From positions 124,001 through 188,000 of the forward strand of contig JAFSGE010000025.1 in assembly GCA_017434885.1 (NCBI GenBank): DNA of 64,000 nucleotides. The letters run 5' to 3'. The first letter of the stretch is position 1; every line of letters starts with the position of its first letter. The notes under the pieces are model-generated. The model ran no database searches. It saw nothing but the letters and a program-made list of their open reading frames with translations, and was not told the DNA's origin. The DNA comes from Lachnospiraceae bacterium (GTDB taxonomy: Bacteria; Bacillota; Clostridia; Lachnospirales; Lachnospiraceae). The translations under genes and the position numbers were made by a program. Positions 4,842 to 31,960 of this stretch are shown here, piece by piece.

Positions 4842-4862
4842 ATGAATAGGAGGCAAAAGAGG

Positions 4863-5576
4863 ATGAAAATGTTATCACTGAAAGAAGAACTTGCAAACAA
4901 TGCTTACCCCGGACGCGGAATTGTTATCGGAAAGACACCCAACGGAAAGTATGCGGTAACAGCTTACTTTATTATGGGAAGAAGCTCCAATAGCCGTAAT
5001 CGTGTCTTTGTAGAGGACGGACAGGGAATCCGTACACAGGCTTTTGACCCTTCCAAGTTAGAAGACCCCAGCCTGATTATCTATGCACCGGTAAGAGTAC
5101 TTGGCAACAAGACTATCGTGACAAACGGTGACCAGACAGATACTATTTATGAAGGTATGGACAAGCAGCTTACTTTTGAACAGTCACTCAGAAGCCGCGA
5201 ATTTGAACCCGATGGTCCTAACTACACACCTCGTATCTCCAGTGTGATGCATATCGAAAACGGTACTTACAATTATGCAATGTCTATCTTAAAGAGCAAC
5301 AACGGTAACCCTGAAAGCTGTAACAGATACACATTTGCCTATGAAAACCCTGTAGCGGGTGAGGGCCATTTTATTCATACATATATGCATGACGGCAATC
5401 CCCTTCCCAGCTTTGAAGGAGAACCTAAGTTAGTGGATATGATGGATGATATGGAAGCATTTACCGACATGCTTTGGGAAAATTTAAACGAAGAAAATAA
5501 GGTATCTCTTTTTGTAAGATACATTAATATCCAAACCGGTCAGTACATGACAAAGATTGTGAACAAGAACAACTAA
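4863..5576 (+). CDS. purO: IMP cyclohydrolase, PurO type
   Basis: 237 residues, resembling the PurO-type IMP cyclohydrolase family (first known from archaea, also found in Clostridia), which closes FAICAR to IMP in the last step of purine synthesis. Family-like stretches include NPYPGRG-type ANNAYPGRGIVIG near the N-terminus and NYTPRISSV in the middle. I chose ATG 4863 because AGGAGG lies at 4848-4853; an upstream in-frame ATG at 4818 falls inside the riboswitch terminator and has no ribosome site. It is followed after 20 bases by the AICAR transformylase gene, so together they replace the usual bifunctional PurH. Control is by the ZTP riboswitch just upstream. Confidence 0.85.
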   Translation: MKMLSLKEELANNAYPGRGIVIGKTPNGKYAVTAYFIMGRSSNSRNRVFVEDGQGIRTQAFDPSKLEDPSLIIYAPVRVLGNKTIVTNGDQTDTIYEGMDKQLTFEQSLRSREFEPDGPNYTPRISSVMHIENGTYNYAMSILKSNNGNPESCNRYTFAYENPVAGEGHFIHTYMHDGNPLPSFEGEPKLVDMMDDMEAFTDMLWENLNEENKVSLFVRYINIQTGQYMTKIVNKNN

Positions 5577-5596
5577 CAAAGATAAGGAGATAAGCG

Positions 5597-14478: not shown

Positions 14479-16668
14479 ATGGCAATTCAATTTTATGAAA
14501 AAGAACAGCTTTTTAAATTGGATACAAAGAGCACAACCTATGCAATCGGCATTGTGGATGAAGAAAAATTTGTCGGACATATTTATTACGGAGAGAAGGT
14601 AAGTGATTACCGTCTGGGTTATCTGATGCGTACGGAGGAACCTCCTTTTGTACCTTCAAAGAATGACAGGGACAGAGTATCCTTCCTTGACAGCTTTGCC
14701 ATGGAATATCCGGCTCACGGACTGGGTGATTACAGAGAAAGCTGTATCAGTATCCGCACACTTGGCGGTAATGTGGCGCTTTCCCTTTCTTACATATCAC
14801 ATGAAATCACAAAAGGAAAAGTACCCTTTCAGGGATTACCCTCATCCTTTGGCAGTGAAGAAGAATGTAGTGTACTGTCAATTCTCTGTGAAGATAAGGT
14901 GACAGGAATCCGCGTGGTATTACAGTATGGTGTTTTTGAAGACGTAGATGTTATTACCAGAAGTGTAAAAGTGGTGAATGGCGGTGCGGAAGAAGTATAT
15001 CTGACTAAAGTATATTCTGCCTGCCTTGATATGGATAACAAAGAATTTGAGGCAATTTCCCTTCATGGTTCTTGGGCAAGAGAGAGACACAAACAGGTTG
15101 TACCTATCAGCCATGGCAAATACAGTGTGGAATCCATTCGCGGTGAGACCAGTCATCAGGATCACTGTTTTATGGCGTTGCAAACCAAGGGGACTACACA
15201 GGAATGTGGTGAAGTGTATGCCATGAATTTTGTGTATTCCGGTAATTTTAAAGTGATGGCACAGTCAGACCAGTTTGATCAGGTGCGCATGGTAATGGGT
15301 ATTCACCCTGAAGATTTTACATGGAAGCTGATGCCCGGTGAAGAATTCCAGGCTCCTGAGGTTGTGATGGTTTATTCTGCCGAAGGACTTGGACAGATGA
15401 CCAGAACCTTCCATGATTTTTATAGAAAGCATTTGATTCGTAGTCCTTATAAGGATAAAAAGCGTCCCATTCTGATTAACAATTGGGAAGCAACTTATTT
15501 TGATTTTAATACAGAAAAATTGATTGCTATTGCAAAGCAGGCATCCGAGCTGGGTATAGAAATGCTTGTTATGGATGACGGCTGGTTCGGTAACCGCTGT
15601 GATGACAACAGAGCGTTAGGTGACTGGTTTGTCAATGAAGATAAACTGCAGGGCGGTTTGAAGTATCTGGTGGATGAAGTGAATAAACTGGGTATGAAAT
15701 TCGGTATTTGGTTTGAGCCGGAAATGATTTCTCCGGACTCCGAGCTTTACCGTGCGCATCCCGACTGGGCGATTGCTATTAAGGGAAGAACACCCAGCCT
15801 TTGCAGAAACCAATATGTGCTTGACTTAACCCGCAGTGAGGTGCTTGACTATGCTTATGAGTGCGTGGCGAAGATACTCCGCAGTGCCAATATTGAATAT
15901 GTAAAGTGGGATATGAACAGACAGCTTTCCGATATCGGTTCTGCCGAGCTTCCGGCAGACAGGATGGGTGAGCTTTATCACAGATATGTGCTTGCTGTGT
16001 ATGAGATGCAGGAGAGACTGATGAAGGAATTCCCTGATTTGCTTCTTGAGAACTGTTCCGGCGGCGGTGCAAGATTTGACCCCGGTATGCTGTTCTACAG
16101 TCCTCAGATTTGGTGTTCCGATGATACGGATGCCATTGAAAGACTTATGATTCAGGAAGGAACTGCTTTGATTTATCCGTTGTCCGCAATGGGTGCTCAT
16201 GTTTCTGACTGTCCGAACCATACAGTGGGCAGAGTAACACCTTTTGAAACGAGAGGATATGTTGCACTGGCGGGAACCTTTGGTTATGAGCTTGATGTTA
16301 CAAGGATACCGGCAGCAGACCGTGAAATGATTCCCGAGCAGGTTGCGATGTATCACAAATATAATGATTTGGTAAGAGAAGGGGACTATTACAGAATTGC
16401 ATCTTATGCAGATAATCATTATTTTGATTGCTACGGTGTGGTAAGCAAGGATAAAAAGGAAGCCCTTTATACCTTTGTTCAGGTGTTGAACCGTCCGAAT
16501 TATCACAGCAGAAGAATCTGTCTGAAAGGTCTTGCCCCCGAAAAGCAATACCGCATCGAGGGAGAAGAACGCATTTATATAGGCGAACTTCTTATGAAAG
16601 CAGGTATCAATGTACCGAATCCCTGGGGAGACTTCGTGGGAAAACTGATTCATGTTACAGAGGTTTAG
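14479..16668 (+). CDS. GH36 alpha-galactosidase
   Basis: 729 residues, full length for clan GH-D family 36, which removes alpha-1,6-galactose from raffinose-type sugars or galactomannan side chains. Catalytic nucleophile is Asp478 in KWDMN; the acid/base is expected at Asp548 in WCSDDTD. Also visible are MDDGWFGNR in the barrel and CSGGGARFDPG. No signal peptide, so it acts in the cytoplasm. GGAGGCGGG precedes ATG 14479. It has its own strong promoter and is followed by a LacI-family regulator gene, placing it in the mannan locus as the debranching enzyme. Confidence 0.93.
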   Translation: MAIQFYEKEQLFKLDTKSTTYAIGIVDEEKFVGHIYYGEKVSDYRLGYLMRTEEPPFVPSKNDRDRVSFLDSFAMEYPAHGLGDYRESCISIRTLGGNVALSLSYISHEITKGKVPFQGLPSSFGSEEECSVLSILCEDKVTGIRVVLQYGVFEDVDVITRSVKVVNGGAEEVYLTKVYSACLDMDNKEFEAISLHGSWARERHKQVVPISHGKYSVESIRGETSHQDHCFMALQTKGTTQECGEVYAMNFVYSGNFKVMAQSDQFDQVRMVMGIHPEDFTWKLMPGEEFQAPEVVMVYSAEGLGQMTRTFHDFYRKHLIRSPYKDKKRPILINNWEATYFDFNTEKLIAIAKQASELGIEMLVMDDGWFGNRCDDNRALGDWFVNEDKLQGGLKYLVDEVNKLGMKFGIWFEPEMISPDSELYRAHPDWAIAIKGRTPSLCRNQYVLDLTRSEVLDYAYECVAKILRSANIEYVKWDMNRQLSDIGSAELPADRMGELYHRYVLAVYEMQERLMKEFPDLLLENCSGGGARFDPGMLFYSPQIWCSDDTDAIERLMIQEGTALIYPLSAMGAHVSDCPNHTVGRVTPFETRGYVALAGTFGYELDVTRIPAADREMIPEQVAMYHKYNDLVREGDYYRIASYADNHYFDCYGVVSKDKKEALYTFVQVLNRPNYHSRRICLKGLAPEKQYRIEGEERIYIGELLMKAGINVPNPWGDFVGKLIHVTEV

Positions 16669-16732
16669 TTACTGATTCGGAATAACTTAAAAAGACCAAA
16701 GAATAATCATCAGCAGCAAAAGGAGAATGAAT

Positions 16733-17755
16733 ATGGCAAAGGCCGTAAAACTTGCTGACATAGCGGAAATTATGAATGTAAGTACCGTAACGGTGTCCAA
16801 AGCGCTATCGGACCAAAAGGGCGTCAGCGAGGAGCTTCGTGAAAAAATTAAACAACTGGCTCAGGAGATGGGATATAAGTCGCCCACTGCCATGAGGATG
16901 CAGAGCGCGCAGAAGAGTTATAATATCGGTGTGCTGATTTCAGAGCGGTATTTTGACCAGAATGAATCTTTTTATTGGCAGATGTATCAGCAGGTAGCAA
17001 CCAGAGCAGTGGCAAAAGAGTGCTTTACCATGTTGGAGCTTGTTGCCTATGAGAAAGAAAGACAGCTTGAAATGCCTAAGCTTTTGCGGGAAAATAAAGT
17101 GGATGGCCTGATTATCATTGGCCTTTTGAAAGAAAAATATTTGGAGATGTTAAGACAAAACATCCGTGTGCCCTTTGTGTGCCTGGATTTTTATGATAAG
17201 AAGCATGAGTGCGATGCGGTGATTACCGATAATTATTATGGTATGTACAAGATGACAAACTATCTGTTTGACATGGGACATACGGAAATTGCTTATGTGG
17301 GAACACTTCTTTATACGGGAAGTATTACGGATCGCTATTTCGGTTATGCCAAAGCACTTATGGAACATGGAAAGAAAGTGCGGGAAGACTGGATTATAGA
17401 AGACAGAGATATGCTAAACGGACAGAGAGAGGATGGGTTTACGTTAAATTTCCCGGAGGAGATGCCGACGGCATTTGTCTGCAACTGTGACTTGACAGCC
17501 GGTGTGGTAATCAATGCTTTGCAGGAAAGAGGTTACCGTGTTCCGGAAGATATTTCTGTGGTAGGATTTGATAACTATATTCATCCCAGTGTCTGCAATG
17601 TGGGAATTACGACCTATGCGGTTGATATTAAAGAAATGGCAAAAAAAGCAATCAACATTATGACCAGAAAAATGTCCGGCGAGCATTATAAACAGGGAAT
17701 TGCCATTGTGGAAGGTCATATGGTGATAAAAGACAGCGTAAAACAGATTGTTTAA
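16733..17755 (+). CDS. LacI-family transcriptional regulator
   Basis: 340 residues. The N-terminal helix-turn-helix KLADIAEIMNVSTVTVSKAL (exactly the LacI pattern) is followed by a periplasmic-binding-protein-like sugar sensor ending in VVGFDNY...TTYAVD. ATG 16733 is preferred: AGGAG at 16721-16725 leaves 7 bases to it, but only one base to the alternative ATG at 16727. It follows the GH36 gene by about 60 bases and ends at a shared hairpin facing the AraC-family gene. Likely a local, sugar-released repressor of the mannan locus; effector unknown. Confidence 0.92.
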   Translation: MAKAVKLADIAEIMNVSTVTVSKALSDQKGVSEELREKIKQLAQEMGYKSPTAMRMQSAQKSYNIGVLISERYFDQNESFYWQMYQQVATRAVAKECFTMLELVAYEKERQLEMPKLLRENKVDGLIIIGLLKEKYLEMLRQNIRVPFVCLDFYDKKHECDAVITDNYYGMYKMTNYLFDMGHTEIAYVGTLLYTGSITDRYFGYAKALMEHGKKVREDWIIEDRDMLNGQREDGFTLNFPEEMPTAFVCNCDLTAGVVINALQERGYRVPEDISVVGFDNYIHPSVCNVGITTYAVDIKEMAKKAINIMTRKMSGEHYKQGIAIVEGHMVIKDSVKQIV

Positions 17756-19068: not shown

Positions 19069-20520
19069 ATGAAACTGAGAAAAATGTTAGCACTTACTCT
19101 TGCAACAGCTATGACATTATCTTTAGTAGCTTGTGGCGGCAGTGCAGAAACAACAGAAACAACAACAGAAACAGCAACAGAAACAAAGACAGAAGCAGAA
19201 GCTGAAGTAAAGGAAGAAGCTCCCGCAGCAGAAGCAGAAGCAGAAGCACCTGCAGGTGTTCCTACTTACACACAGATTACTCTTGGTGAGGACTACACAG
19301 ACCTTACAGCAGAAATCAAGTGGATTCACCACAAAACAGACCGTGAAGAAGACGGTACAATCGCAGCTATGGTAGCTGAGTTCAACAAAGTATATCCTAA
19401 CATCACAGTTACAACTGAAGGTGTTACAGACTACGCAGAAGATGCTCTTCTTCGTCTTTCCACAGGTGACTGGGGCGACATTATGTTCATCCCTGCAGTA
19501 GATAAGGCTGAATTAGCTAACTACTTCCAGCCCTTCGATACACTTGAAAACATGTCTACAGCAATCAACTTTGCTGATGCTTGGGAATTTGGCGGCACAA
19601 GCTACGGTGTTCCTTACATGGCTAACGCACAGGGTGTTCTTTACAACAAGGCTGTATTTGAAGCAGCAGGTATTACAGAACTTCCTACAACTCCCGATGA
19701 ATTCCTTGCAGCTCTTCAGGCAATCAAGGATAACACAGACGCTATTCCTTTGTATACAAACTATGCAGCAGGTTGGACAATGGGTGCTTGGGATGCTTAC
19801 ATCGGTACAGTATCTGAAGGTGACAACACATACATGAACCAGAAGTTCGTTCATGATGCAGCTCCTTTCGATGATCCCGGTGATGGCACAGGTATCTACA
19901 ACCTTTACAAGATCCTTTACGATGCAGTTGCTAACGGCTTAATCGAAGACGACTACACAACAACTGACTGGGAAGGTTGTAAGGGTATGATCAACAGAGG
20001 TGAAATCGGTACTATGGTACTTGGTTCTTGGGCATTTGCTCAGATGGTAGAAGCTGGTGAAAACGGTGATGACATCGGCTACATGCCTTTCCCTATGACT
20101 GTTAACGGCACACAGTACGTTGCAGCAGGTGGCGACTACAACTTCGCTATCAATGTTAACTCTTCTGATGACAACAAGACAGCAGCTATGGTATTCGTTA
20201 AGTGGATGACTGAAGAATCCGGATGGTGCTACAACGAAGGTGGTTATACAGTAGCTAAGGGTGGACAGAACCCTGATATGTACGCTGCATTTGACGGATG
20301 TGAAGTATTAGCAGATATGCCTGCAATCGCTGGCGAAGAAACATTCTTAAATGATGTTAACGCTGAATCTGAGCTTTCCTTCAACGCAGGCGGTAACGCT
20401 AAGGTTCAGAGAATCGTAGAAGCAGCAGCTACAGGTTCCGAAAGCTATGATGATATCATGGCTGACTGGACAGCTAAGTGGAACGATGCTCAGGATTATC
20501 TTGGAATCGAAGCTAACTAA
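19069..20520 (+). CDS. Sugar ABC importer, solute-binding lipoprotein
   Basis: 483 residues. A lipoprotein signal (positively charged start, hydrophobic run, lipobox LVACGG with Cys22) is followed by a Thr/Glu/Ala-rich linker (about 25-65) typical of surface-anchored binding proteins, then a family 1 extracellular solute-binding fold (IKWIHHKTDREEDGTIAAMV onward, quoted in part). It captures oligosaccharides outside the membrane for the two permeases encoded next. AAAAAGGAGG precedes the start. Codon choice is markedly biased (GCA, ACA, CTT) compared with neighbours, consistent with high expression. Mannan oligosaccharides are the likely ligand, judged by the downstream enzymes. Confidence 0.93.
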   Translation: MKLRKMLALTLATAMTLSLVACGGSAETTETTTETATETKTEAEAEVKEEAPAAEAEAEAPAGVPTYTQITLGEDYTDLTAEIKWIHHKTDREEDGTIAAMVAEFNKVYPNITVTTEGVTDYAEDALLRLSTGDWGDIMFIPAVDKAELANYFQPFDTLENMSTAINFADAWEFGGTSYGVPYMANAQGVLYNKAVFEAAGITELPTTPDEFLAALQAIKDNTDAIPLYTNYAAGWTMGAWDAYIGTVSEGDNTYMNQKFVHDAAPFDDPGDGTGIYNLYKILYDAVANGLIEDDYTTTDWEGCKGMINRGEIGTMVLGSWAFAQMVEAGENGDDIGYMPFPMTVNGTQYVAAGGDYNFAINVNSSDDNKTAAMVFVKWMTEESGWCYNEGGYTVAKGGQNPDMYAAFDGCEVLADMPAIAGEETFLNDVNAESELSFNAGGNAKVQRIVEAAATGSESYDDIMADWTAKWNDAQDYLGIEAN

Positions 20521-20571
20521 TAGATTTAGATAGAATAATCTGAAATATTGGTAGTGAAATAATGAATATCG

Positions 20572-20599
20572 GAGCCAAGGGGAGGTTTCTCCTTGGCTC
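20572..20599 (+). other. Intercistronic hairpin after the binding-protein gene
   Basis: GAGCCAAGG (20572-20580) pairs with CCTTGGCTC (20591-20599), with no T run following. Such hairpins after binding-protein genes protect the upstream mRNA or give partial termination, so that the binding protein outnumbers the permeases. Confidence 0.65.
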
Positions 20600-20651
20600 T
20601 AATACTCTAAAGTGTTAGGAATGGGCTTGTTTTATCAGGAGGGAAGAGCGT

Positions 20652-21656
20652 ATGGCAGCAATGACTCAGGTTTCAATGAAGAAGAAAAGAACTTTGGGGG
20701 AATGGGCGCGCAGCAGAGACGGACAGAAAGTGTTTGTCATGGTAGCATTTATGATTATTCCTTTGGTTCTGTTATTTGTATTTACATATCTGCCTTTTGC
20801 GGAAATGTTTGGCTTCAGTTTTTACAACATGAAGTATATCGGTGAAAGAAAATTTGTTGGTTTAAAGAATTATATCAGAGTATTTCAGAGAGATGACTGT
20901 TTCAGTGCCCTTAAGAACAGTTTGTATTACATGGGCGGTTCGGTTGTGCAGTTGGCACTGGCACTTTATCTGGCAACAGTTTTAAGTTTTAAAGTAAAGG
21001 GCGGAAGCATTTTTAAGGGCTTCATGTTTTTCCCTTACTTAATCAATGGTATTGCAGTTGGTTTTATTTTTAAATTTTTCTATACCAGAGGCTTCGTGTT
21101 TGATACCGTGCTTCAGTGGTTTGGATTTGAACTTGAAAATTTACCTTACTGGTTGAAGGACCAGAGCATTAACAATATATCTCTGGTGGGTACTTCTGTA
21201 TGGCGTTATTTCGGACAGAACATGGTGCTCTTTATCGGTGCAATTATGTCTGTGGATTCCGAACTTTACGAAGCAGCCATGCTTGACGGTGCCAATCGCT
21301 TCCAGCAGTTTATGTATATTATTTTACCCAGCATTAAGACAATCATCGTACTTAATGTTATTCTTTCCATCACAGGTTCTTTGAGTGCTTTCGAGCCTCC
21401 TTACGTTATTACAAGCGGTGCGAACGGAACGGGTACCTACTTCGTTATCATGCATGAGATTGCACATACCCAGCAGAAGGTAGGTGTGGCATCAGCCATG
21501 GCAATCATCCTGTTGATGATTATTTTCGCGGCAACGATTCTGCAGAAACTGTTCTTCAAGTATGTATTCAGAAGTGCAGAGGATGAAGATTTAAATGCAA
21601 CAGCAAGACGTGATAAGAAGCTGGCAAAATTAGCAGCAAGAAAGGCAGGGAGATAA
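20652..21656 (+). CDS. Sugar ABC importer permease 1 (MalF/UgpA type)
   Basis: 334 residues with six predicted membrane helices, the first after a short basic N-terminus. The EAA loop that contacts the ATPase reads YEAAMLDGANRFQQFMYIILP (quoted core EAAMLDGANRFQQF). It forms the channel with the next gene's product. Start has AGGAGGGAAG upstream. A separate ATPase gene is absent from the window, as usual for such importers, which share an MsmX-type ATPase encoded elsewhere. Confidence 0.93.
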   Translation: MAAMTQVSMKKKRTLGEWARSRDGQKVFVMVAFMIIPLVLLFVFTYLPFAEMFGFSFYNMKYIGERKFVGLKNYIRVFQRDDCFSALKNSLYYMGGSVVQLALALYLATVLSFKVKGGSIFKGFMFFPYLINGIAVGFIFKFFYTRGFVFDTVLQWFGFELENLPYWLKDQSINNISLVGTSVWRYFGQNMVLFIGAIMSVDSELYEAAMLDGANRFQQFMYIILPSIKTIIVLNVILSITGSLSAFEPPYVITSGANGTGTYFVIMHEIAHTQQKVGVASAMAIILLMIIFAATILQKLFFKYVFRSAEDEDLNATARRDKKLAKLAARKAGR

Positions 21657-21658
21657 GT

Positions 21659-22507
21659 ATGACAAATTTACAGAAAATCGGTAGTTATGCATTGACTGTT
21701 CTTAAGTATTTATCATTGGTATTTTTCTCATTTGTGGCAATTATACCGGTTGTTTCCTGCGTGATTACCGCGTTTAAAACAGATACCGAATACCAGAACA
21801 CCAACGTTATGGTATTTCCGGAAAGCTGGTTGTATTTTGAGAACTTTGTACAGGCATTTGAAAGAGCCAATATGGGAAGAGGATTTATCAATTCTATTAT
21901 TATTTTGGTAAGTGTGCTTGTGATTTCCACATTTGTGGGTACACAGCTTGCTTATGTGTTAAACCGTTTTAAATTCCCCGGAAATGGTCTGATTCGTAGC
22001 CTTTTCTTATTTGCTTCATTGCTTCCCGGTGTAGCAATGCAGGTTTCTCTCTATGCAATTATGCACGGAATGGGATTTATTAACTCTCTTTGGGGATACA
22101 TCATTTTGATGTGCGGTACGGACGTTATTTCCATTTATATTTACATCCAGTTCTTTGAAAATATTTCAATATCACTGGATGAATCGGCAATCGTGGACGG
22201 CGCTTCCTATTTTACAATTTTCTACAGAATTTTATTACCGCTTTTAAAGCCTGCGATTGTAACATCCTGTATCTTAAAAGGTGTAAATACATATAACGAA
22301 TATTATGCGGCAAATTTGTATTTACAGGATAAGAAATTATTGCCTACAGTAGCGACTTCATTGTATACTTTTGTTGGGCCCTTAGGCAGCAAATACAACT
22401 TAATTTGTGCAGGTGTTATCATTTCACTTTTACCGGCACTCGTGTTGTTCATTACTTGTCAGAAACAGATTTACAGCGGACTTACTTCCGGTGCTGTTAA
22501 GGGTTAA
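21659..22507 (+). CDS. Sugar ABC importer permease 2 (MalG/UgpE type)
   Basis: 282 residues, six predicted membrane helices, EAA loop DESAIVDGASYFTIFYRILLP (quoted core DGASYFTIFYRILLP). Starts two bases after the first permease gene stops. Partner in the CUT1-type oligosaccharide importer. A short gap leads to the epimerase gene, so uptake and breakdown are co-expressed. Confidence 0.93.
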   Translation: MTNLQKIGSYALTVLKYLSLVFFSFVAIIPVVSCVITAFKTDTEYQNTNVMVFPESWLYFENFVQAFERANMGRGFINSIIILVSVLVISTFVGTQLAYVLNRFKFPGNGLIRSLFLFASLLPGVAMQVSLYAIMHGMGFINSLWGYIILMCGTDVISIYIYIQFFENISISLDESAIVDGASYFTIFYRILLPLLKPAIVTSCILKGVNTYNEYYAANLYLQDKKLLPTVATSLYTFVGPLGSKYNLICAGVIISLLPALVLFITCQKQIYSGLTSGAVKG

Positions 22508-22557: not shown

Positions 22558-23727
22558 ATGAAAACAATTGCAGCAGAAATTAAGAATCATTTAACACAGG
22601 ACATTATTCCCTTTTGGAAGAAGATGCGTGACAATGAATATGGCGGTTACTACGGCTATATGGACTATGACCTTAATCTGGACAAAGAAGCGGTGAAGGG
22701 CTGCATTTTGAACAGCCGTATCACATGGTTTTTTGCCAATGCATATACCCTTCTTAAGGATGAAAGTCTTTTGGACGAAGCGAAACACGGGTTTGCTTTC
22801 ATGAAAGAGCATTGCATGGATAAAGAAAACGGAGGTATTTTCTGGTCCATGAAATATGACGGAACTCCGGAGGATACTACCAAGCATACATATAATCAGG
22901 CTTTTTCCATCTATGCTCTTTCCTCCTATTATGAGGCATCAGGGGATGTGGAAGCACTTGAAATGGCAAAAGACTTATTCCGCATTATTGAAACAAAATG
23001 TACCGATGAAATCGGTTATAAAGAAGCATTTGATAAAGAATTTAATGAAATTGAAAATGATAAGCTTTCCGAAAACGGCGTCATTGCAGAAAAGACAATG
23101 AATACCCTGCTTCATGTGTTTGAGGCTTATACAGAGCTTTACCGTGTGGCAAAGCTGCCCGAAGTGAAGGAGAAGCTTACATGGATCATGGATGTGTTTG
23201 CAGACCAGGTTTACAATCCGGAGCTTCACAGACAGGAAGTGTTCTTTGACGCACAGATGAACTCCATTATCGATTTACATTCCTACGGACATGATATAGA
23301 AACCGCATGGCTGATTGACAGAGGTGTGGAAGTTCTGGGCGATGAAAAGTATGAAGCAAAAATGTCACCCATTACCAAAGATTTGACAGCACAGATTTAT
23401 AAGATTGCATTTGACGGACGTTCCCTCGCCAACGAATGTGAGAAGGGTGTGGTGGATACACACAGAATCTGGTGGGTACAGGCTGAAACCGTTGTGGGAT
23501 TTTTGAACGGATGGGAAAAGAATCCTGACAAGCCGGAGTATCTGGAAGCAGTGAAAGCACAGTGGAACTTTATCAAAGAATATGTAATAGACAAGAGAAA
23601 CGGTTCTGAATGGTATTGGTGGGTAGCTCCCGATGGAACAGCCCTTGAAAAACCGATTGTAGAACCTTGGAAATGTCCTTATCACAACGGCAGAATGTGT
23701 TTTGAAGTGATAAAGAGAACAGAATAA
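22558..23727 (+). CDS. AGE-family epimerase, cellobiose/mannobiose 2-epimerase
   Basis: 389 residues of the N-acylglucosamine 2-epimerase superfamily, matching the cellobiose 2-epimerase branch in length and motifs: NSRITWFFANAY near the N-terminus, KHTYNQAFSIYALS, LHSYGHDIETAWL and VDTHRIWWVQAE, which supply the conserved histidines. In known mannan pathways this enzyme converts beta-1,4-mannobiose to mannosyl-glucose, the substrate for a GH130 phosphorylase. The next two genes are GH130 enzymes, which makes this role very likely. Cytoplasmic; no signal peptide. Confidence 0.9.
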   Translation: MKTIAAEIKNHLTQDIIPFWKKMRDNEYGGYYGYMDYDLNLDKEAVKGCILNSRITWFFANAYTLLKDESLLDEAKHGFAFMKEHCMDKENGGIFWSMKYDGTPEDTTKHTYNQAFSIYALSSYYEASGDVEALEMAKDLFRIIETKCTDEIGYKEAFDKEFNEIENDKLSENGVIAEKTMNTLLHVFEAYTELYRVAKLPEVKEKLTWIMDVFADQVYNPELHRQEVFFDAQMNSIIDLHSYGHDIETAWLIDRGVEVLGDEKYEAKMSPITKDLTAQIYKIAFDGRSLANECEKGVVDTHRIWWVQAETVVGFLNGWEKNPDKPEYLEAVKAQWNFIKEYVIDKRNGSEWYWWVAPDGTALEKPIVEPWKCPYHNGRMCFEVIKRTE

Positions 23728-23751
23728 AAATGTTTGTATGAGGAGGAAATC

Positions 23752-24930
23752 ATGTTACATCAGAAATATTATGAAGAGCTGAAAAAATATGAAGAGCTCA
23801 TTAACAGAAAGAATGAAGTGGATACCGAATTTTATAACGGTGTTTACGATAAGTATGTTTATCCCGTACTTACCAGAGATCATATTCCGCTTACTTGGCA
23901 GTATGATTTGAACCCTGAAACCAATCCTTATTTCATGAAGAGACTTGGAATCAATGCGGTGATGAATTCCGGTGCCATCGAACTGAACGGAAAGTATTAT
24001 TTGGTTGCCAGAATTGAAGGAGATGACAGAAAATCTTTCTTTGGCGTAGCAGAGAGTGATAACGGTGTAGACGGATTTAAATTCTGGGATTACCCTATTT
24101 TACTTCCTGATACCTGTCCGGAAGAGACCAACGTATATGACATGCGTCTTACCAAGCATGAAGACGGTTATATTTACGGTGTGTTCTGTTCTGAAAGTAA
24201 AGACACTACAGTGAACGATTTGTCTGCGGCAGTTGCTGCGGCAGGTATCGTGAGAACCAAGGATTTAAAGACTTGGGAGAGACTTCCCAACTTAGTAACT
24301 TTAAATTCCCCCCAGCAGAGAAATGTAGTACTTCATCCCGAATTTGTAGACGGCAAGTATGCATTCTATACAAGACCCATGGATGATTTCATTGAAACAG
24401 GTTCAGGCGGCGGTATCGGATTCGGACTTTGTGATGATATTACCAAGGCTGTTATCGATGAAGAAAAGATGACAAGTATCCGTAGATACCACACCATTAC
24501 CGAGGCGAAGAACGGCGCGGGTGCAGTTCCCATTAAGACAGAAAAGGGTTGGATACATATTGCGCACGGCGTAAGAAATACAGCGGCAGGTCTGCGTTAT
24601 GTTATTTACGCATTTGCAACAGATTTAAATGACCCTTCCAAGGTAATTGCAGAGCCCTCAGGACTGTTAATCGGACCCAGAGGCGGTGAAAGAGTCGGCG
24701 ATGTTTCCAACGTAGTATTCACAAACGGTGCCATTGCCAACGACAAGGGAGAAGTATATATTTACTATGCTTCCAGTGACACCAGAATGCATGTTGCAGT
24801 TACTACCATTGATAAGCTGATTGATTATGTATTTAACACACCCAAGGATCCCCTTAGAAGTGTGGAATGTGTGGCACAGAGATGTGATATGATTGAAAAG
24901 AACCTTGCATTTCTTGCGCAGCAGAAATAA
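23752..24930 (+). CDS. GH130 subfamily 1-like 4-O-beta-mannosyl-glucose phosphorylase
   Basis: 392 residues, five-bladed-propeller GH130 family. The stretch [20 protein letters not shown] and [21 protein letters not shown] (each quoted within limits) is characteristic of the mannosyl-glucose phosphorylases. Reaction: mannosyl-glucose plus phosphate gives mannose-1-phosphate and glucose. AGGAGG at 23741-23746 selects ATG 23752 over an in-frame TTG at 23734. It lies directly after its substrate-making epimerase. Assigning subfamily 1 is by motif memory, not a tree. Confidence 0.88.
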
Positions 24931-24953: not shown

Positions 24954-25976
24954 ATGAGCGAATTAAAAATGATTGCCCCTGCGGTAAAAAATGTACCCTG
25001 GCAGGAAAGACCTGCTAACTTAGTCGGAGCACCTGTTTGGAGATATACAGAAAACCCTATTATCGGACGTAATCCTGTAGAAGGCGTTGCAAGAATCTTT
25101 AACAGTGCAGTTATGCCTTACGGTGATGAATTTATCGGTGTGTTCCGTGGTGAACAGACAAACGGTATCCCTTATATTTACATGGGAAGAAGTAAAGATG
25201 CGATTCACTGGGATTTCGACAAGGAAAAGATTCCTTTTGTAAATGAAAAGGGTGAACCTTTCATGCCCAGATATGCATATGACCCCAGGCTGGTTAAAGT
25301 AGAAGACACTTACTACATTATCTGGTGTCAGGATTTCTATGGTGCTTCCATCGGTATGGCAAAGACCACAGATTTCAAGACATTTACAAGACTTGAAAAT
25401 CCTTTCATTCCTTACAACAGAAACGCAGTATTGTTCCCCAGAAAGATTAACGGAAACTATATGCTTCTTAGCCGTCCTTCCGACAGCGGACATACACCTT
25501 TCGGTGATATCTTCTTAAGCGAAAGCCCTGACATGGTATACTGGGGCAAGCACAGACATGTAATGAGCCAGGGAAGCGAATGGTGGGAGTCCGTTAAGAT
25601 TGGTGGCGGTGCAGCTCCTATCGAGACAAGCGAAGGCTGGTTGTTATTCTACCACGGTGTAAGCGGAACCTGTAACGGTTTTGTATACTCCATCGGTGGT
25701 GCAATCTTAGACCTTGAAAATCCTTCTATCGTGAAGTACAGATGTGAAAACTTCCTGTTAACTCCCGAAGAATGGTATGAAGAAAGAGGATTTGTTCCTA
25801 ACGTATGTTTCCCTTGTGCAACCATTCATGATCCTGAGAGCGGAAGAATTGCAATCTACTATGGTTGTGCAGACAGCTATGTAGGTCTTGCATTTACACA
25901 GTTTGAAGATATCGTGGCTTATATCAAGGAACACAGCCATGTAACAGAAACAGATACAGAAATCGGTATCAGATAA
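24954..25976 (+). CDS. GH130 subfamily 2-like beta-1,4-manno-oligosaccharide phosphorylase
   Basis: 340 residues, a second and distinct GH130 enzyme. Typical motifs: NPIIGRNPVEGVARIFNSAV (start of the propeller), RYAYDPRLVKVEDTYY and NRNAVLFPRKI. Known members of this branch remove the terminal mannose of manno-oligosaccharides with phosphate, giving mannose-1-phosphate. Shorter than its neighbour by about 50 residues, as expected between the two subfamilies. Starts 23 bases after the first GH130 gene, with GAGGAG before ATG. Together they give a phosphorolytic, energy-saving route for mannan breakdown. Confidence 0.88.
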   Translation: MSELKMIAPAVKNVPWQERPANLVGAPVWRYTENPIIGRNPVEGVARIFNSAVMPYGDEFIGVFRGEQTNGIPYIYMGRSKDAIHWDFDKEKIPFVNEKGEPFMPRYAYDPRLVKVEDTYYIIWCQDFYGASIGMAKTTDFKTFTRLENPFIPYNRNAVLFPRKINGNYMLLSRPSDSGHTPFGDIFLSESPDMVYWGKHRHVMSQGSEWWESVKIGGGAAPIETSEGWLLFYHGVSGTCNGFVYSIGGAILDLENPSIVKYRCENFLLTPEEWYEERGFVPNVCFPCATIHDPESGRIAIYYGCADSYVGLAFTQFEDIVAYIKEHSHVTETDTEIGIR

Positions 25977-26034: not shown

Positions 26035-26102
26035 TGCTCATAGGTAATTTTCATGGGCAATAAAATATGAATGCGCACTTGCGCAAAAAGGGAGAGAAGG
26101 TT

Positions 26103-27230
26103 ATGGAATATAATGTACATCCCGAGCAGGGAATGATTCACAGAGGCAACTGGTCTCGTATCAAAGCATGCATGCAAAAAGCAAAGGAAGGAAAGTCATT
26201 AAAAGTAGGTTTTCTTGGTGGCTCCATTACCCAGGGAAGTCTTTCCTCCACGTCGGAAACCTGTTATGCCTATCTGGTATATGATTGGTGGAAAAAGAGA
26301 TTTCCGCAGACGGAAATAGAATATATAAATGCCGGAATTGGCGGGACAACGTCCCAGTTTGGTGTATCAAGAGTAAAAGCACATTTACTTTCATATGCGC
26401 CTGATTTTGTGCTGACAGAGTTTGCGGTAAATGATGACAATACCGAGTTTTTTAAGGAGACTTACGAAGGACTTATCAGGAAAATATTGTCAGATGAGTG
26501 TAAACCGGCTTTGGTGCTGATGAACAATGTGAAATATGATGACGGACTGAATGCGGAGGATATGCATTTGGCAGTGGCAAAAGCATATGAACTTCCTATG
26601 GTAAGTATGAGACATACAATTTGGCCGGAGGTAGAAGCGGGACGTATCCCTAACAGAGAGATTACGCCGGATGATCTTCATCCCAACGATGCAGGACATG
26701 CACTTGTAGCACAGGTTATTACCACATTCCTTGATAAGGTCTATGAGGATTTGGAAAATGAAGAGCAACCCGCAGTGTATGACGCGAAAGAAATGCCTGC
26801 ACCGATTACGACAAATGCTTATGAAAAATCCGTGCGTTATCAGAATTTTAACAGTGAGCCTGTTTTAACGGGATTTGAAGCTGACAAAGAAGAACAGAAG
26901 CATATCACGGAGTTTTTCAGAAACGGTTGGACTGCATGGGAAAAGGACAGCAAAATAACATTTAAGATAAACGGTACGGGAATTGCGGTGCAGTATCGCA
27001 AGTCAGTGAAGCAGCCTACGCCCATAGCGCAGATTGTGATTGACGGGGATACAGAAAATGCAATGCTTCTTGACGGCAATTTTGACCAGGATTGGGGAGA
27101 TTGCCTTCACATTGATACAGTGGCAAGGAATTTAAAGCCGGATGAACATACGGTAGAAATTACGATTGTGCAAACAAATCCGGCAGATGTAGTTCCTTTT
27201 TATCTGGTATCTGTTATTGGTTCAAACTAA
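26103..27230 (+). CDS. SGNH acetylesterase, CE17-like, with C-terminal beta-sandwich
   Basis: 375 residues. The SGNH hydrolase blocks are clear: Ser41 in GGSITQGS, Gly block INAGIGGTTSQFG, Asn block FAVND, and Asp191/His194 in DDLHPNDAGH. A second domain of about 150 residues (from about 225) looks like a carbohydrate-binding beta-sandwich, the layout of CE17 mannan 2-O-acetylesterases with their CBM35. No signal peptide, so deacetylation is inside the cell. ATG 26103 has AGGGAGAGAAGG before it; the in-frame ATG at 26067 has none. CE2 enzymes have the reverse domain order, which argues against CE2. Confidence 0.85.
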   Translation: MEYNVHPEQGMIHRGNWSRIKACMQKAKEGKSLKVGFLGGSITQGSLSSTSETCYAYLVYDWWKKRFPQTEIEYINAGIGGTTSQFGVSRVKAHLLSYAPDFVLTEFAVNDDNTEFFKETYEGLIRKILSDECKPALVLMNNVKYDDGLNAEDMHLAVAKAYELPMVSMRHTIWPEVEAGRIPNREITPDDLHPNDAGHALVAQVITTFLDKVYEDLENEEQPAVYDAKEMPAPITTNAYEKSVRYQNFNSEPVLTGFEADKEEQKHITEFFRNGWTAWEKDSKITFKINGTGIAVQYRKSVKQPTPIAQIVIDGDTENAMLLDGNFDQDWGDCLHIDTVARNLKPDEHTVEITIVQTNPADVVPFYLVSVIGSN

Positions 27231-27251: not shown

Positions 27252-29636
27252 ATGGAAAATAACAAAATCTCTGATAAAGAAGTAAAGAAAAAACTGCAGG
27301 CAGAAAAGAAAGCGCTAAAGAAGGAACAGGCTGAGCAGAAGAAGGCCGCAAAGGAAGCTGCAAAAGCAGAAAAGGAATTGCAAAAAGCGGCACGCGCAGA
27401 AGCGGAGGCGGAAAGTGATTTGCAGGCAGCATCCGTGCAGGAGCAAATGTCCGCTGGAAAGAAACAAAAAGTGAAGATTGCGAAAAAGGAAAAAGCTGTG
27501 AAGGGTGACAAAAAGAAAATTGACTTCGCCACACTGCTTGGCAGCGTGAAAGACCTCCGTGGAGGCGGTAGCAAAAAGAGTATTTTAGGTACACTGCTTG
27601 CTGCATTTATGGTGCCGGTAGTGCTGATGATTACACTTGGTATTGTTTCTTACAACACGGCGTCTTCCGGTATTGTGGATAAATACAAAGAGTCAGCGAT
27701 TTCTACAGTTTCTGCGGTAGGTGACTACTTTAATCTGGTATGTGATAATATTTCAGGAAAAGCGCTGGAGCTGATTACGAACAGTGATGTGGGTGATTAT
27801 TATGATAAGCATTACGGGAAACAGACACCTGCGGCAATGGAATCCTTCCGTAATGCAAAATCCATTATCAGCAATGCCAAGTCAACAAATAAAAATATTT
27901 ACAGCTGTAGTATTATTCCGGAAAGTACGGCATATTTGTCCACTTTATCCGGCGGTATGACAGAAACTCCCATGGCAGACTTTACCGAGACTGCGGAAGG
28001 ACAATACTTTGTGACAAACAATACGCAGAGAAATAAGTGGATGGGTTATCAGACTTATTTGGATGCCAATATGCAAAGTAAGCAGGAAAATTACGCTTTT
28101 GTATATTACCAGAAATTTTCAAGAGCAGATGCATTTTTGGTAATGTCAGTAGATATGACAGTTGTAAAAGATATGCTTGACGGAATGGATTTTGGAGAAG
28201 GCAGTATCAAAGCATTAGTAGCTGCTGACGGAAGAGAGGTTTCTTTTGTGCAGAAAGCAGATGGTGCACAGGAAGCAGATGCGGCCGAAGAAAGCGCGCA
28301 GGAGCAGAATTGGTTTGTCGGAAATGAATTTTATGAATCAACCAAAGAAGCAGAAGAGCCGGGCAACGTTGATGTCAAAATTGGCGGAAAGAGATATGTA
28401 TATATTTACGCTCCTGTTGGAAAAACAGGTGCCATGGTATGTGCGCTGATACCTGAAGATAACGTACTTGGACAGGTAGGAAGTATTAAATATATTACTA
28501 TCTTTATGGTTATCCTGGCAGCAGGTGCAGCACTTGCTATCGGATTTGTGATTTCCGCAGGCATCAGTAAGACTGTAAAAGAAATGAGCAACGGACTTTC
28601 AGTAGTGGCTGGGGGCGATTTGTCCAAGGATTTTGAGACAAAGAGAAAGGATGAATTTGAGACCCTGACAGGAAGCTTGAATGCCATGATGCAGAGCATG
28701 AGAACACTGATGACGGATATGAAGCAGTTCAGTGCCAAGGTAAACGGGCTTTCCGGTGATGTATCTCACAAGACAACTGCAATTAATGAGTCCATGCAGG
28801 ATATTACAAGAGCCATGGATGAAGTGGCAGGCTGTGTGCAGAGTCAGGCAGAAGATACAGAGACAAGTAATGAAAATATGGCAGCATTTTCAGCAAACAT
28901 CGATGCGGTTACTGCTGAAACAGAGCGTATGGGTACTACGGTAGATAAAGCAATTGACGCGGTAGAAAAGGGAAGAGTAATTGTGGAAGATTTGAGTGCA
29001 AAATCCGATACCACGGTTTCGCTTACACGAGTACTGGTAAATGATATTGATGCGGTACAGAAAAACTCTGCTGAAATTAAGAACTTTGTTGACGTGATTA
29101 ACAATATTGCTGGACAGACCAATCTTTTATCCTTAAATGCTTCCATTGAGGCGGCAAGAGCAGGAGAAGCGGGCAGAGGCTTTGCGGTCGTTGCCGAGGA
29201 AATCCGTAAGCTTGCTGATCAGTCCAAGGAATCCGGTGATAAGATTCGTGAAATTGTAGAACACATCGGAGTGACAACGGATAAGACAACAGAATCTGCG
29301 AGAGAAGCCGAAAACATGGTAAATGAACAGGCAAAGGCTTTGGAAGAGACGGTAAAAGTATTTGGCATGATTCATGACTGTGTAGGAGAACTGGTAGAAG
29401 GAATCCGTATGGTAACAGAAAGACTGGAAGAGAGCATGAACGAAAAAGATAGGGTAGAGAGCTCCTTGCAGAATATTTCCGCAGTATCCGAAGAAGTGGC
29501 AGCTTCTACAGAGGAAGTAACAGCAACCTTAGGTGAGCAGGTTTCCGTGATTCAGAATCTTAAAGATAAAGTAGAAGAACTCAGAGAAGATGCGCTTAGA
29601 CTTGATATCTCTATTGAGAAATTTAAAATTGACTAA
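27252..29636 (+). CDS. Methyl-accepting chemotaxis protein with long charged N-terminal tail
   Basis: 794 residues. Order: a Lys/Ala/Glu-rich cytoplasmic tail (1-112), first membrane helix (about 115-138), a Cache-like outer sensor (about 140-415), second helix (about 418-440), HAMP, and a signalling domain with the hairpin tip NLLSLNASIEAARAGEAGRGF (quoted core SLNASIEAARAGEAGRG). It starts 21 bases after the esterase gene and 17 bases before the GH1 fusion gene, inside the mannan operon, so it may sense mannan sugars and steer motility. The long tail before helix one is unusual; most chemoreceptors begin within a few residues of it. Confidence 0.92.
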   Translation: MENNKISDKEVKKKLQAEKKALKKEQAEQKKAAKEAAKAEKELQKAARAEAEAESDLQAASVQEQMSAGKKQKVKIAKKEKAVKGDKKKIDFATLLGSVKDLRGGGSKKSILGTLLAAFMVPVVLMITLGIVSYNTASSGIVDKYKESAISTVSAVGDYFNLVCDNISGKALELITNSDVGDYYDKHYGKQTPAAMESFRNAKSIISNAKSTNKNIYSCSIIPESTAYLSTLSGGMTETPMADFTETAEGQYFVTNNTQRNKWMGYQTYLDANMQSKQENYAFVYYQKFSRADAFLVMSVDMTVVKDMLDGMDFGEGSIKALVAADGREVSFVQKADGAQEADAAEESAQEQNWFVGNEFYESTKEAEEPGNVDVKIGGKRYVYIYAPVGKTGAMVCALIPEDNVLGQVGSIKYITIFMVILAAGAALAIGFVISAGISKTVKEMSNGLSVVAGGDLSKDFETKRKDEFETLTGSLNAMMQSMRTLMTDMKQFSAKVNGLSGDVSHKTTAINESMQDITRAMDEVAGCVQSQAEDTETSNENMAAFSANIDAVTAETERMGTTVDKAIDAVEKGRVIVEDLSAKSDTTVSLTRVLVNDIDAVQKNSAEIKNFVDVINNIAGQTNLLSLNASIEAARAGEAGRGFAVVAEEIRKLADQSKESGDKIREIVEHIGVTTDKTTESAREAENMVNEQAKALEETVKVFGMIHDCVGELVEGIRMVTERLEESMNEKDRVESSLQNISAVSEEVAASTEEVTATLGEQVSVIQNLKDKVEELREDALRLDISIEKFKID

Positions 29637-29653: not shown

Positions 29654-31960
29654 ATGTTTCGTGATGATTTCGTCTGGGGCGTTGCCAGTAGCGCCTATCA
29701 GGTAGAAGGAAAAGAAGAAGGAGACGGATGCGGTAAAAACATCTGGGACACTTTTACCGAAGAAGGAAGAATTTTGGATGGATATAATGCGTATGTGACT
29801 TGTGACCATATGCACAGATACAAAGAAGACTACGCTTTGATGCGTATGCTTGGTATCAAGGCTTACCGTTTTTCCATGAGTTGGGCGAGAATTTTGCCCG
29901 AAGGAACCGGAAAAGTAAATGAAAAAGCAATAGCGCTTTACAGAGACATGATTCTGGAAATGAAGAAGAACGGCGTAGAGCCTTATATTACAATGTATCA
30001 CTGGGAGTTTCCCCAGGCCCTTCAGGATAAAGGCGGCTGGCTGAATGAAGAAGTGATTGACTGGTTTGCTGAGTATGCAAAGGTGGTTGCGGAGAATTTC
30101 TCCGATATTTGTGAGTACTTTATCACTTTAAATGAGCCTCAGTGCTTCGTGGGACTTGGCCATTTGTCCGGTGTACACGCACCGGGTGTGAAGCTTCCTT
30201 ACAAGGATGTTTTCCAGATTGCGCATAATGCGCTCCGTGCACACGGTAAGGCAGTTATCAATCTGAGAAAATATGCATGTCGTCCCATTAAGGTTGGCTA
30301 TGCACCTACCTGTGGTATGGCTTATCCTGCCAGTGATAAACCGGAAGATATTGAAGCGGCAAGAAAGACACTGTTCGGTTTCCATCAGCCTATGGATAAC
30401 TGGACCTGGAATGTGGCATGGTTTAATGACCCTGTGTTCCTTGGCAAATATCCTGAGGAGGGACTTAAGAAATTTGCCGAATATCTGCCGGAAATCACGG
30501 AAGAAGATATGAAACTGATTTCCCAGCCTCTTGATTTTATGGGTCAGAATATTTACAACGGATATATGATGAAGGCAGGGGCAGACGGCGAACCTGAATT
30601 TGTAGACAGACCCGCAGGATTCCCCAAAACAGCGGCAAATTGGCCGGTAACCCCCGGATGCTTTTATTGGGGTGTGAAGTTCCTTTATGAAAGATATAAA
30701 ATGCCGCTGTATATTACGGAAAACGGTATGTCCTGTCATGATGACGTGTCCTTGGACGGCAAGGTACATGACCCGAACAGACAGAACTTCCTTGACCTTT
30801 ATATGTCTGCATTGCAGAAAGCCAATGATGAAGGTGCGGATGTCAGAGGATATTTCCTTTGGACATTTCTTGATAATTTTGAGTGGGATAAGGGATATAC
30901 GGAGAGATTCGGTATCGTGCATGTAGATTTTGCAACGCAGAAGAGAATTGTGAAGGATTCCGCTTACTGGTATCAGAAAGTAATTGAAACAAACGGTGCA
31001 AACTTAAGTATCAACCGGAAACCCCGTCAGATTCTGTTCCTTGACCCTGTGTTTAAACAGATGATTTGGGGCGGCAATCAGCTGGAAACTAAATTTGGTT
31101 ATCAAATTCCCGGAGATAAGACCGGTGAGTGCTGGGCTGTCAGTGCACATCCCAACGGAGATTGCGTGGTAAGAGAAGGCATTTATGCTGGAAAGAGCCT
31201 GTCAGAATTGTGGGAAGAGTATCCTGAGTTGTTCGGAAACAGTGATTATGACCGCTTCCCGCTTCTCATTAAGATTATTGATGCCAAGGATGACCTCAGT
31301 ATTCAGGTACATCCCGATGATGCCTATGCAGGAGAACACGAAAACGGTTCCTTCGGAAAAACTGAATGTTGGTATATTTTGGACTGTCCCGAAGATGCAG
31401 CCCTTGTAGTTGGGCATAATGCAGGAAGCAAGGAAGAACTTGCGGACATGATTGCACAGGGCAAGTGGGGCGAGTTGATTCGCGAAGTGCCTGTAAAGAA
31501 AGGCGACTTTATTCAGATTAATCCCGGTACGGTACATGCCATTAAGGGCGGTCTGATGATTTTGGAAACCCAGCAGAACAGCGATATTACTTATCGTGTA
31601 TATGATTACGACAGACTTACCGACGGAAAGCCCCGTCAGCTTCATGTACAGCAGAGTATTGATGTGATTACTGTGCCTGCACCTTCCGCAGATGACAGTG
31701 TGAAATCCGCACTTGACCTGCCGAAGAATGTGATGAATGAGTTAATCAGCTGTGATTACTATACTGTATGGAAATTGGATTTGGATGGAGCAATTTCCTT
31801 TGAGCAGACACATCCTTTCCTGATTATGAGCGTAATAGAAGGCGAAGGCCTTGTGAACGGTCAGATGATTAAAAAGGGCGACCACTTTGTGATTCCCAGC
31901 GGAATGGGAGAAGTGGAGATGCAGGGTGAAATGGTGCTGATTGCATCGAGTGTGAAATAA
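29654..31960 (+). CDS. GH1 beta-glycosidase fused to class I mannose-6-phosphate isomerase
   Basis: One 768-residue frame with two whole enzymes. Residues 1-446 are a GH1 barrel with acid/base in TLNEPQ (about Glu161), nucleophile in YITENGMS (about Glu355), and NFEWDKGYTERFG, whose glutamate indicates an unphosphorylated sugar rather than a phospho-glucoside. Residues 452-768 are a Bacillus-type ManA: QVHPDD (about 550), KTECWY (about 568) and NPGTVHAIKGG (about 628) supply the zinc ligands. There is no long linker. Role inferred: hydrolysis of beta-glucosyl or mannosyl disaccharides plus conversion of mannose-6-phosphate to fructose-6-phosphate. AAAGGAAG precedes the start. Confidence 0.93.
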   Translation: MFRDDFVWGVASSAYQVEGKEEGDGCGKNIWDTFTEEGRILDGYNAYVTCDHMHRYKEDYALMRMLGIKAYRFSMSWARILPEGTGKVNEKAIALYRDMILEMKKNGVEPYITMYHWEFPQALQDKGGWLNEEVIDWFAEYAKVVAENFSDICEYFITLNEPQCFVGLGHLSGVHAPGVKLPYKDVFQIAHNALRAHGKAVINLRKYACRPIKVGYAPTCGMAYPASDKPEDIEAARKTLFGFHQPMDNWTWNVAWFNDPVFLGKYPEEGLKKFAEYLPEITEEDMKLISQPLDFMGQNIYNGYMMKAGADGEPEFVDRPAGFPKTAANWPVTPGCFYWGVKFLYERYKMPLYITENGMSCHDDVSLDGKVHDPNRQNFLDLYMSALQKANDEGADVRGYFLWTFLDNFEWDKGYTERFGIVHVDFATQKRIVKDSAYWYQKVIETNGANLSINRKPRQILFLDPVFKQMIWGGNQLETKFGYQIPGDKTGECWAVSAHPNGDCVVREGIYAGKSLSELWEEYPELFGNSDYDRFPLLIKIIDAKDDLSIQVHPDDAYAGEHENGSFGKTECWYILDCPEDAALVVGHNAGSKEELADMIAQGKWGELIREVPVKKGDFIQINPGTVHAIKGGLMILETQQNSDITYRVYDYDRLTDGKPRQLHVQQSIDVITVPAPSADDSVKSALDLPKNVMNELISCDYYTVWKLDLDGAISFEQTHPFLIMSVIEGEGLVNGQMIKKGDHFVIPSGMGEVEMQGEMVLIASSVK

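What the first reader, a model, noticed from the sequence alone, without database searches (positions are those of the whole stretch)
29654..31960. GH1 glycosidase and phosphomannose isomerase fused in one protein
A single frame encodes a complete GH1 barrel (both catalytic glutamates) followed with almost no linker by a complete class I mannose-6-phosphate isomerase (zinc-ligand motifs QVHPDD, KTECWY, NPGTVHAIKGG). Each enzyme is normally separate. In a mannan operon the fusion would couple disaccharide hydrolysis to the entry of mannose into glycolysis, suggesting channelling or fixed stoichiometry. I do not recall this pairing as a described enzyme.
Basis: partly seen in the sequence, partly recalled or inferred. 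Interest (0 to 1): 0.78.

Follow-up and report, generated by a model that had tools for sequence, protein, structure and literature searches.

The report
Known mannan-locus glucosidase–isomerase fusion
A gut bacterium makes one protein that joins a sugar-cutting enzyme to the enzyme that feeds mannose phosphate into glycolysis; the pairing is real and found in many relatives, but was already described in Roseburia.

Summary
Window 29654-31960 (+) is one 768-aa frame: a complete GH1 domain (Pfam 2-448) followed by a complete type I mannose-6-phosphate isomerase (PMI, 462-766). It is no artefact: 69 distinct full-length fusions share the junction and nearly invariant active sites in both halves, and both halves are under purifying selection. 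It closes a mannan-utilisation operon and is the only GH1 and only TIGR00218-type PMI found in its genome.

The claim of novelty fails. La Rosa et al. 2019 described a bifunctional protein of the same length in Roseburia intestinalis and assayed its C-terminal part as a PMI; a 2022 paper names RhGH1-M6P in R. hominis. Simple channelling is unlikely: GH1 yields free hexose, PMI needs mannose-6-phosphate.

What remains: the 2019 split at residue 246/247, applied to this protein, cuts the GH1 domain in half, so the reported lack of glucosidase activity is probably uninformative. Relatives also show separate genes, one-sided decay, and replacement of the partner by a CE2 acetylesterase. No structure model could be made.

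The parts
29654..31960 (+). GH1-PMI fusion gene, 768 aa
29657..30997 (+). GH1 beta-glucosidase-type domain (residues 2-448); acid/base E161 at 30134-30136, nucleophile E356 at 30719-30721
30998..31033 (+). junction, residues 449-460 (12 residues in 54 of 69 fusions, range 9-14)
31034..31957 (+). type I mannose-6-phosphate isomerase domain (residues 461-768); metal-site positions Q551, H553, E571, H628
14479..16668 (+). GH36 alpha-galactosidase, same locus
16727..17755 (+). LacI-family regulator
19069..22507 (+). sugar ABC importer: binding protein (19069-20520) and two permeases (20652-21656, 21659-22507)
22558..23727 (+). cellobiose/mannobiose 2-epimerase-like protein (Mep)
   Evidence: below the curated cut-off of the EpiA model
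23734..24930 (+). GH130 mannoside phosphorylase (first of two)
24954..25976 (+). GH130 mannoside phosphorylase (second of two)
26067..27230 (+). GDSL/SGNH esterase; RiCEX, also SGNH-type, is the neighbouring locus tag of the fusion in R. intestinalis
27252..29636 (+). methyl-accepting chemotaxis protein directly upstream of the fusion

Best explanation
This is the bifunctional GH1-PMI enzyme of the Lachnospiraceae mannan-utilisation locus, the counterpart of RiGH1 (ROSINTL182_05469/70) of R. intestinalis and RhGH1-M6P of R. hominis. Inferred working: manno-oligosaccharides enter through the ABC importer; [quoted passage not shown] a mutase encoded elsewhere makes mannose-6-phosphate; the PMI half makes fructose-6-phosphate for glycolysis. 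The GH1 half most likely removes beta-linked glucose (perhaps mannose) from imported oligosaccharides as a non-phospho beta-glucosidase. The two halves work on different branches of one pathway and are joined for shared expression, not for passing a common intermediate. As the only TIGR00218-type PMI found in the genome, the PMI half probably serves mannose-6-phosphate metabolism in general. Shown: sequence, domains, conservation, copy number, locus. Shown by others in R. intestinalis: PMI activity of the C-terminal part. Inferred: cytoplasmic location, GH1 substrate, reason for fusion.
For: Single frame with two full domains. 69 distinct fusions with conserved active sites. dN/dS in 11 close pairs 0.007-0.098 for GH1 and 0.023-0.154 for PMI; several dS values exceed 1 and are near saturation. 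Only GH1 and only TIGR00218 match in its 94.5% complete genome. Of 42 other intact-fusion genomes, 36 have no other PMI over the cut-off; in a second set 14 of 18 (species overlap between the sets not checked). Genomes whose GH1 gene carries no PMI half or a broken one have a PMI elsewhere in 6 of 6 and 6 of 7 (G288 is the L093 gene again; the exception G150 has its GH1 frame running to a contig end). The 2 genomes with a damaged GH1 half have no other PMI over the cut-off. GDSL esterase upstream in 47 of 52 loci with enough flank, GH130 or epimerase in 29 of 52. Published PMI activity of RiGH1_D2.
Against: The only published test of a GH1 half that I saw found no activity, though probably on a half domain. 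L066 has lost the nucleophile, L101 the acid/base and L102 residues 5-130, so GH1 activity is not kept everywhere. 6 of 42 and 4 of 18 fusion genomes have a second PMI (one of them, G314, a second full fusion), and a few more have weak matches below the cut-off. Many genomes are incomplete assemblies and other PMI types (e.g. type II) were not searched, which weakens 'only copy'. 23 of 52 loci show neither GH130 nor epimerase within 6 kb. The R. intestinalis and R. hominis A2-183 sequences were not in hand for a direct alignment.
Confidence: 0.9

Rival explanations
1. The fusion channels substrate: sugar freed at the GH1 site passes to the PMI site.
For: The two domains sit close together with a short linker in one pathway.
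Against: Free hexose is not a PMI substrate; a kinase must act between, and none is fused (the two ROK genes of the genome lie on other contigs). Halves decay independently. Relatives have the domains as separate genes.
Confidence: 0.05
2. The GH1 half is catalytically idle in most members and is kept as a structural or binding module; the protein is in effect a PMI.
For: RiGH1_D1 was inactive; L066, L101 and L102 have damaged GH1 halves with PMI intact.
Against: The published construct ended at residue 246, which in the window protein lies inside the GH1 domain and before the nucleophile. 68 of 69 keep both catalytic Glu, GH1 dN/dS is about as low as that of PMI, and GH1 also occurs without PMI in relatives.
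Confidence: 0.12
3. The frame is an assembly or annotation artefact joining two genes.
For: In R. intestinalis the gene carries two locus tags, and sequence ambiguities between them had to be corrected.
Against: The same junction in 69 distinct sequences from many assemblies, including the strain records Kineothrix alysoides (L075) and Roseburia hominis An869 (L049).
Confidence: 0.01

Closest known systems
RiGH1 (ROSINTL182_05469/70), Roseburia intestinalis L1-82, La Rosa et al. 2019, PMC6385246 (passages seen)
   Different: The paper sets the border at 246/247; here it lies near 449-460. The window has a chemotaxis receptor between esterase and fusion. Sequences not compared directly.
RhGH1-M6P, Roseburia hominis A2-183, PMC9784577 (passages seen)
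   Same: Stated bifunctional GH1 plus mannose 6-phosphate isomerase in a manno-oligosaccharide locus.
   Different: Predicted only, in the passages seen. Another R. hominis record (An869, L049) carries a 76% identical fusion.
FpGH1 'isomerase', Faecalibacterium prausnitzii SL3/3, PMC8262883 (passages seen)
   Same: Named as the isomerase step of the mannan locus.
   Different: Whether it is a fusion is not stated in the passages seen. In the class sample the only 4 full-length fusions lie in the window's own family; two long frames outside it were checked and are interrupted by a stop behind GH1.
Ks5A7 beta-glucosidase (PDB 9l0q, 9l0n)
   Same: Best solved-structure match of the GH1 half by sequence.
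   Different: Its 460-residue chain covers GH1 alone.
Mannose-6-phosphate isomerase, PDB 1qwr (from Bacillus subtilis, organism recalled)
   Same: Best solved-structure match of the PMI half, nearly full length.
   Different: Its 319-residue chain covers PMI alone; has K where the fusions have Q551.

Membership tests
Glycoside hydrolase family 1 (non-phospho beta-glucosidase) | full-length GH1 domain | tested here: met
   PF00232 5-452 of 453; TIGR03356 497.5 bits over cut-off 478.5
Glycoside hydrolase family 1 (non-phospho beta-glucosidase) | two catalytic glutamates | tested here: met
   E161, E356; 69/69 and 68/69 in the fusion set
Glycoside hydrolase family 1 (non-phospho beta-glucosidase) | hydrolysis of a beta-glycoside | not testable with these tools
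   published test used residues 1-246, half of the domain by the window's numbering
6-phospho-beta-glucosidase / -galactosidase (GH1) | score over the curated cut-offs of the phospho models | tested here: not met
   all six phospho models that matched are far below their cut-offs (155-307 bits against 561-686)
Type I mannose-6-phosphate isomerase | catalytic and C-terminal cupin domains | tested here: met
   PF20511, PF21621, TIGR00218 226.5 bits over 116.2
Type I mannose-6-phosphate isomerase | metal-binding residues | tested here: met
   Q551, H553, E571, H628 in 69/69; roles recalled; 1qwr has K at the first
Type I mannose-6-phosphate isomerase | M6P/F6P interconversion | not testable with these tools
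   published for RiGH1_D2
GH1-PMI enzyme of Lachnospiraceae mannan loci (RiGH1, RhGH1-M6P) | GH1 then PMI in one chain, about 768 aa | tested here: met
GH1-PMI enzyme of Lachnospiraceae mannan loci (RiGH1, RhGH1-M6P) | lies in a locus with GH130s, epimerase, esterase, ABC importer, GH36 | tested here: met
GH1-PMI enzyme of Lachnospiraceae mannan loci (RiGH1, RhGH1-M6P) | sequence orthology to ROSINTL182_05469/70 | not tested
   that sequence was not in hand

The most novel reading that the evidence does not exclude
The mannan operons of Lachnospiraceae reshuffle their enzymes into single chains, with GH1 as a recurrent N-terminal carrier: GH1-PMI in most of the fusions seen, GH1-CE2 in L092 and L093, with GH130-CE2, PMI-GH5, GH1-GH5 and PMI-ROK also seen. 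In what look like two separate GH1 lineages the PMI core is cut out, yet a short PMI segment and the C-terminal cupin are kept in frame, which would mean that the cupin has a lasting structural role for the GH1 (assembly or stability) apart from isomerase catalysis.
Probability: 0.3. Interest if true: 0.45.

Novelty: already known. Interest (0 to 1): 0.28.

Why it matters
The fusion itself is in print, so the headline is not new. Two things are of use. First, the published conclusion that the glucosidase half is inactive rests on a construct that, by the window's numbering, ends in the middle of the GH1 domain; the activity of the GH1 half is still open and easy to test. Second, the family holds natural split, decayed and partner-swapped versions that allow a direct test of what an enzyme fusion without a shared intermediate is good for.

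Tried and rejected
Assembly artefact: rejected. 6-phospho-glycosidase, which would have given the halves a phosphorylated link: rejected by model scores. Internal translation start giving a free PMI: one search found 56 start codons near the junction with a loose ribosome-site-like match across the 69 genes; no shuffled control was made and 20 of the 56 were printed, so it says nothing either way. In the window protein no Met lies between residue 440 and the PMI motif KQMIWGG (read by eye). Single origin: for GH1, one clade with 7 free GH1s allowed inside is not rejected (p-AU 0.973, after unfinished); for PMI, one clade with 4 free PMIs is rejected (p 0.0155) and with 7 is not (p 0.598). The sets were chosen after seeing the trees, and the quick GH1 tree was 82 log-likelihood units worse than the constrained one, so its fine branching is unreliable. 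One fusion followed by several separations, or a few fusions, both remain open. L116 and L147 have faint GH1-tail-like residues before a free PMI; too weak to use. Fusions outside the family: two long GH1 frames (G616, G423) were fetched and are broken by a stop behind GH1. Interdomain geometry: the structure predictor was busy at every attempt and no model was made. Paper searches for the pairing by general words found nothing although it is in print. The 2019 paper I opened by a DOI that I recalled; it is also listed, which also gave the 2022 paper. Searches for GH1-CE2 and GH130-CE2 and for a PMI-glucokinase fusion listed no paper under those terms except two general hits, of which I had seen passages of one (PMC8262883); this covers only the open-licence library.

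Full report
WHAT IS THERE. The frame 29654-31960 (+) translates to 768 residues without a stop. Pfam places Glyco_hydro_1 at 2-448, PMI_typeI_cat at 462-558 and the PMI cupin at 697-766; NCBIfam passes the GH1 beta-glucosidase model TIGR03356 and the manA model TIGR00218 over their cut-offs, while the six 6-phospho-glycosidase models that matched fall far below theirs. The best solved-structure matches by sequence are the beta-glucosidase Ks5A7 for the first half and the mannose-6-phosphate isomerase 1qwr for the second.

IT IS REAL AND CONSERVED. A scan of genome contigs found 425 relatives, of which the best 80 were kept as 77 loci; 60 of the 77 hold an intact full-length fusion. With the window and 11 loci this makes 72 frames of 740 aa or more, 69 distinct; partial, decayed and GH1-CE2 frames were left out. 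In these 69 the acid/base Glu is kept in 69, the nucleophile in 68 (K in L066), and the four PMI metal-site positions and R648 in 69. The stretch corresponding to residues 449-460 is 12 residues long in 54 of 69 and 9-14 in all. In 11 close pairs dN/dS is 0.007-0.098 for the GH1 half and 0.023-0.154 for the PMI half, several dS values being above 1.

WHERE IT OCCURS. In a sample of 299 genomes of the window's family, 12 (own included) have the whole protein in one frame, and G006 has it split over two contig ends. In 391 genomes of the class, 4 do at the threshold used, all of the window's family; two long GH1 frames outside the family turned out to be broken by a stop. Titles of the named records are mostly Lachnospiraceae bins; a few bins are labelled Clostridium, Ruminococcus or Bacillus. 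Strain records are Kineothrix alysoides (L075, which lacks residues 474-490), Roseburia hominis An869 (L049), and Lachnospiraceae bacterium A4 (L101, whose GH1 half is damaged).

THE LOCUS. Upstream in the same direction lie a GH36 alpha-galactosidase, a LacI regulator, an ABC sugar importer, an epimerase, two GH130 phosphorylases, a GDSL esterase and a chemotaxis receptor, then the fusion; an AraC-type regulator lies on the other strand. Of 60 intact genome contigs fusions, 52 have at least 5.9 kb of upstream DNA; among these a GDSL esterase is upstream in 47, a GH130 or epimerase in 29, the chemotaxis receptor in 19, and none of the searched genes in 3.

THE PMI HALF IS PROBABLY THE CELL'S PMI. 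The window's genome (94.5% complete) has one GH1 and one TIGR00218 gene, both this one; other PMI types were not searched. In one search, 42 of the 50 genomes carry an intact fusion: 36 have no other PMI over the cut-off and 6 have one (G314, a second full fusion; G320, G327, G334, G335; and G339, where it is joined to a nucleotidyl-transferase-like part). Some of the 36 have weak matches below the cut-off. Of the other 8, the 6 whose GH1 gene lacks a PMI half or has a broken one all have a PMI elsewhere, and the 2 with a damaged GH1 half have no other over the cut-off. In one search, 14 of 18 fusion genomes have only the fused PMI; of the 7 without a fused PMI, 6 have one elsewhere (in G737 and G277 fused to a nucleotidyl transferase) and G150 has none, its GH1 frame running to a contig end. 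The two sets may overlap in species.

HOW IT MOST LIKELY WORKS. By the pathway worked out in R. [quoted passage not shown] a phosphomannomutase makes M6P and PMI makes F6P. The window's genome has two PGM/PMM-type genes and two ROK genes, all on other contigs. The GH1 half by family is a beta-glucosidase (inference). Its product is free hexose, so the two halves share no intermediate; shared expression and fixed ratio is the simplest reading (inference).

WHAT IS KNOWN. La Rosa et al. 2019 (PMC6385246, passages seen) state that ROSINTL182_05469/70 encodes a bifunctional protein with a glucosidase domain (aa 1-246) and an isomerase domain (aa 247-768), that the first was inactive on the substrates tested, and that the second interconverts M6P and F6P. 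[quoted passage not shown] that the split follows the two locus tags is my inference. PMC9784577 (passages seen) names RhGH1-M6P as a bifunctional GH1 and mannose 6-phosphate isomerase. So the pairing is already described. Cutting the window protein at the same place leaves 237 of 453 positions of the GH1 model in the first piece and the rest, with the nucleophile, in the second. If the R. intestinalis protein has the same layout, as its identical length suggests, its first construct could not have been active and the activity of the GH1 half is untested.

BEYOND THE FUSION. In L092 and L093 the same GH1 (76-77% identical) is followed in frame by a CE2 acetylesterase instead of PMI; among 397 family genomes searched with it, only G288, which carries the L093 gene itself, matches over its whole length. 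In G057 a CE2 gene lies directly downstream of GH1-PMI, which suggests deletion of PMI as a route (inference). G265 has GH130 and CE2 in one 744-aa frame; G134 has PMI-GH5 and G170 GH1-GH5; L016, L026 and L113 have PMI-ROK. L088, L090 and L179 have lost the PMI core with all metal-site positions, yet keep a similar short segment and the cupin end in frame. The GH1 of L088 is 85-88% identical to intact fusions L078, L083, L054 and L051 and 86% to L090, while L179 reaches 63% to any GH1 in the set and 59% to L088 and L090, so the loss looks separate; L179 was not placed in a tree. The tree tests allow, but do not show, a single origin of the fusion.

VERDICT. A correct observation, already known, with a useful correction to the published domain border and a side story of domain shuffling in mannan operons. 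No structure model could be made because the machine was busy.

Noticed in passing
window 27252-29636: A chemotaxis receptor inside the mannan operon, whose first 436 residues match no Pfam family at the default threshold; a similar gene lies upstream in 19 of 52 fusion loci. A manno-oligosaccharide sensor is a guess.
   Followed up: partly
L092:6001-8412, L093:6001-8418: GH1 fused to a CE2 acetylesterase at the place where PMI normally sits.
   Followed up: partly
L181:8043-10277 (-): GH130 and CE2 in one 744-aa frame.
   Followed up: partly
L110:1803-4265; L114:1217-3478: PMI-GH5 and GH1-GH5 frames in two relatives.
   Followed up: partly
L016:571-2478 (-); L026:2850-4370; L113:606-2357 (-): PMI fused to a ROK-family protein; in L016 and L026 it directly follows a free GH1 gene, which follows a phosphoglucomutase-like frame (judged by eye).
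   Followed up: partly
L182:1445-3775 (-); L183:1074-3107 (-); L146:139-2487: Nucleotidyl transferase (mannose-1-phosphate guanylyltransferase-like) fused to a type I PMI (L146 judged by eye from its translation).
   Followed up: partly
L088, L090, L179: GH1 followed by a PMI remnant without the metal-site core, in frame.
   Followed up: partly
L190:980-3295 (-): Genome G314 holds two different full-length GH1-PMI fusions.
   Followed up: no
L111:1402-3384; L112:197-1969 (-): PMI with a PHP domain and PMI with DUF7402 behind it.
   Followed up: no
window 4818-6775: IMP cyclohydrolase-like protein and AICAR transformylase-type protein as two separate neighbouring genes.
   Followed up: no
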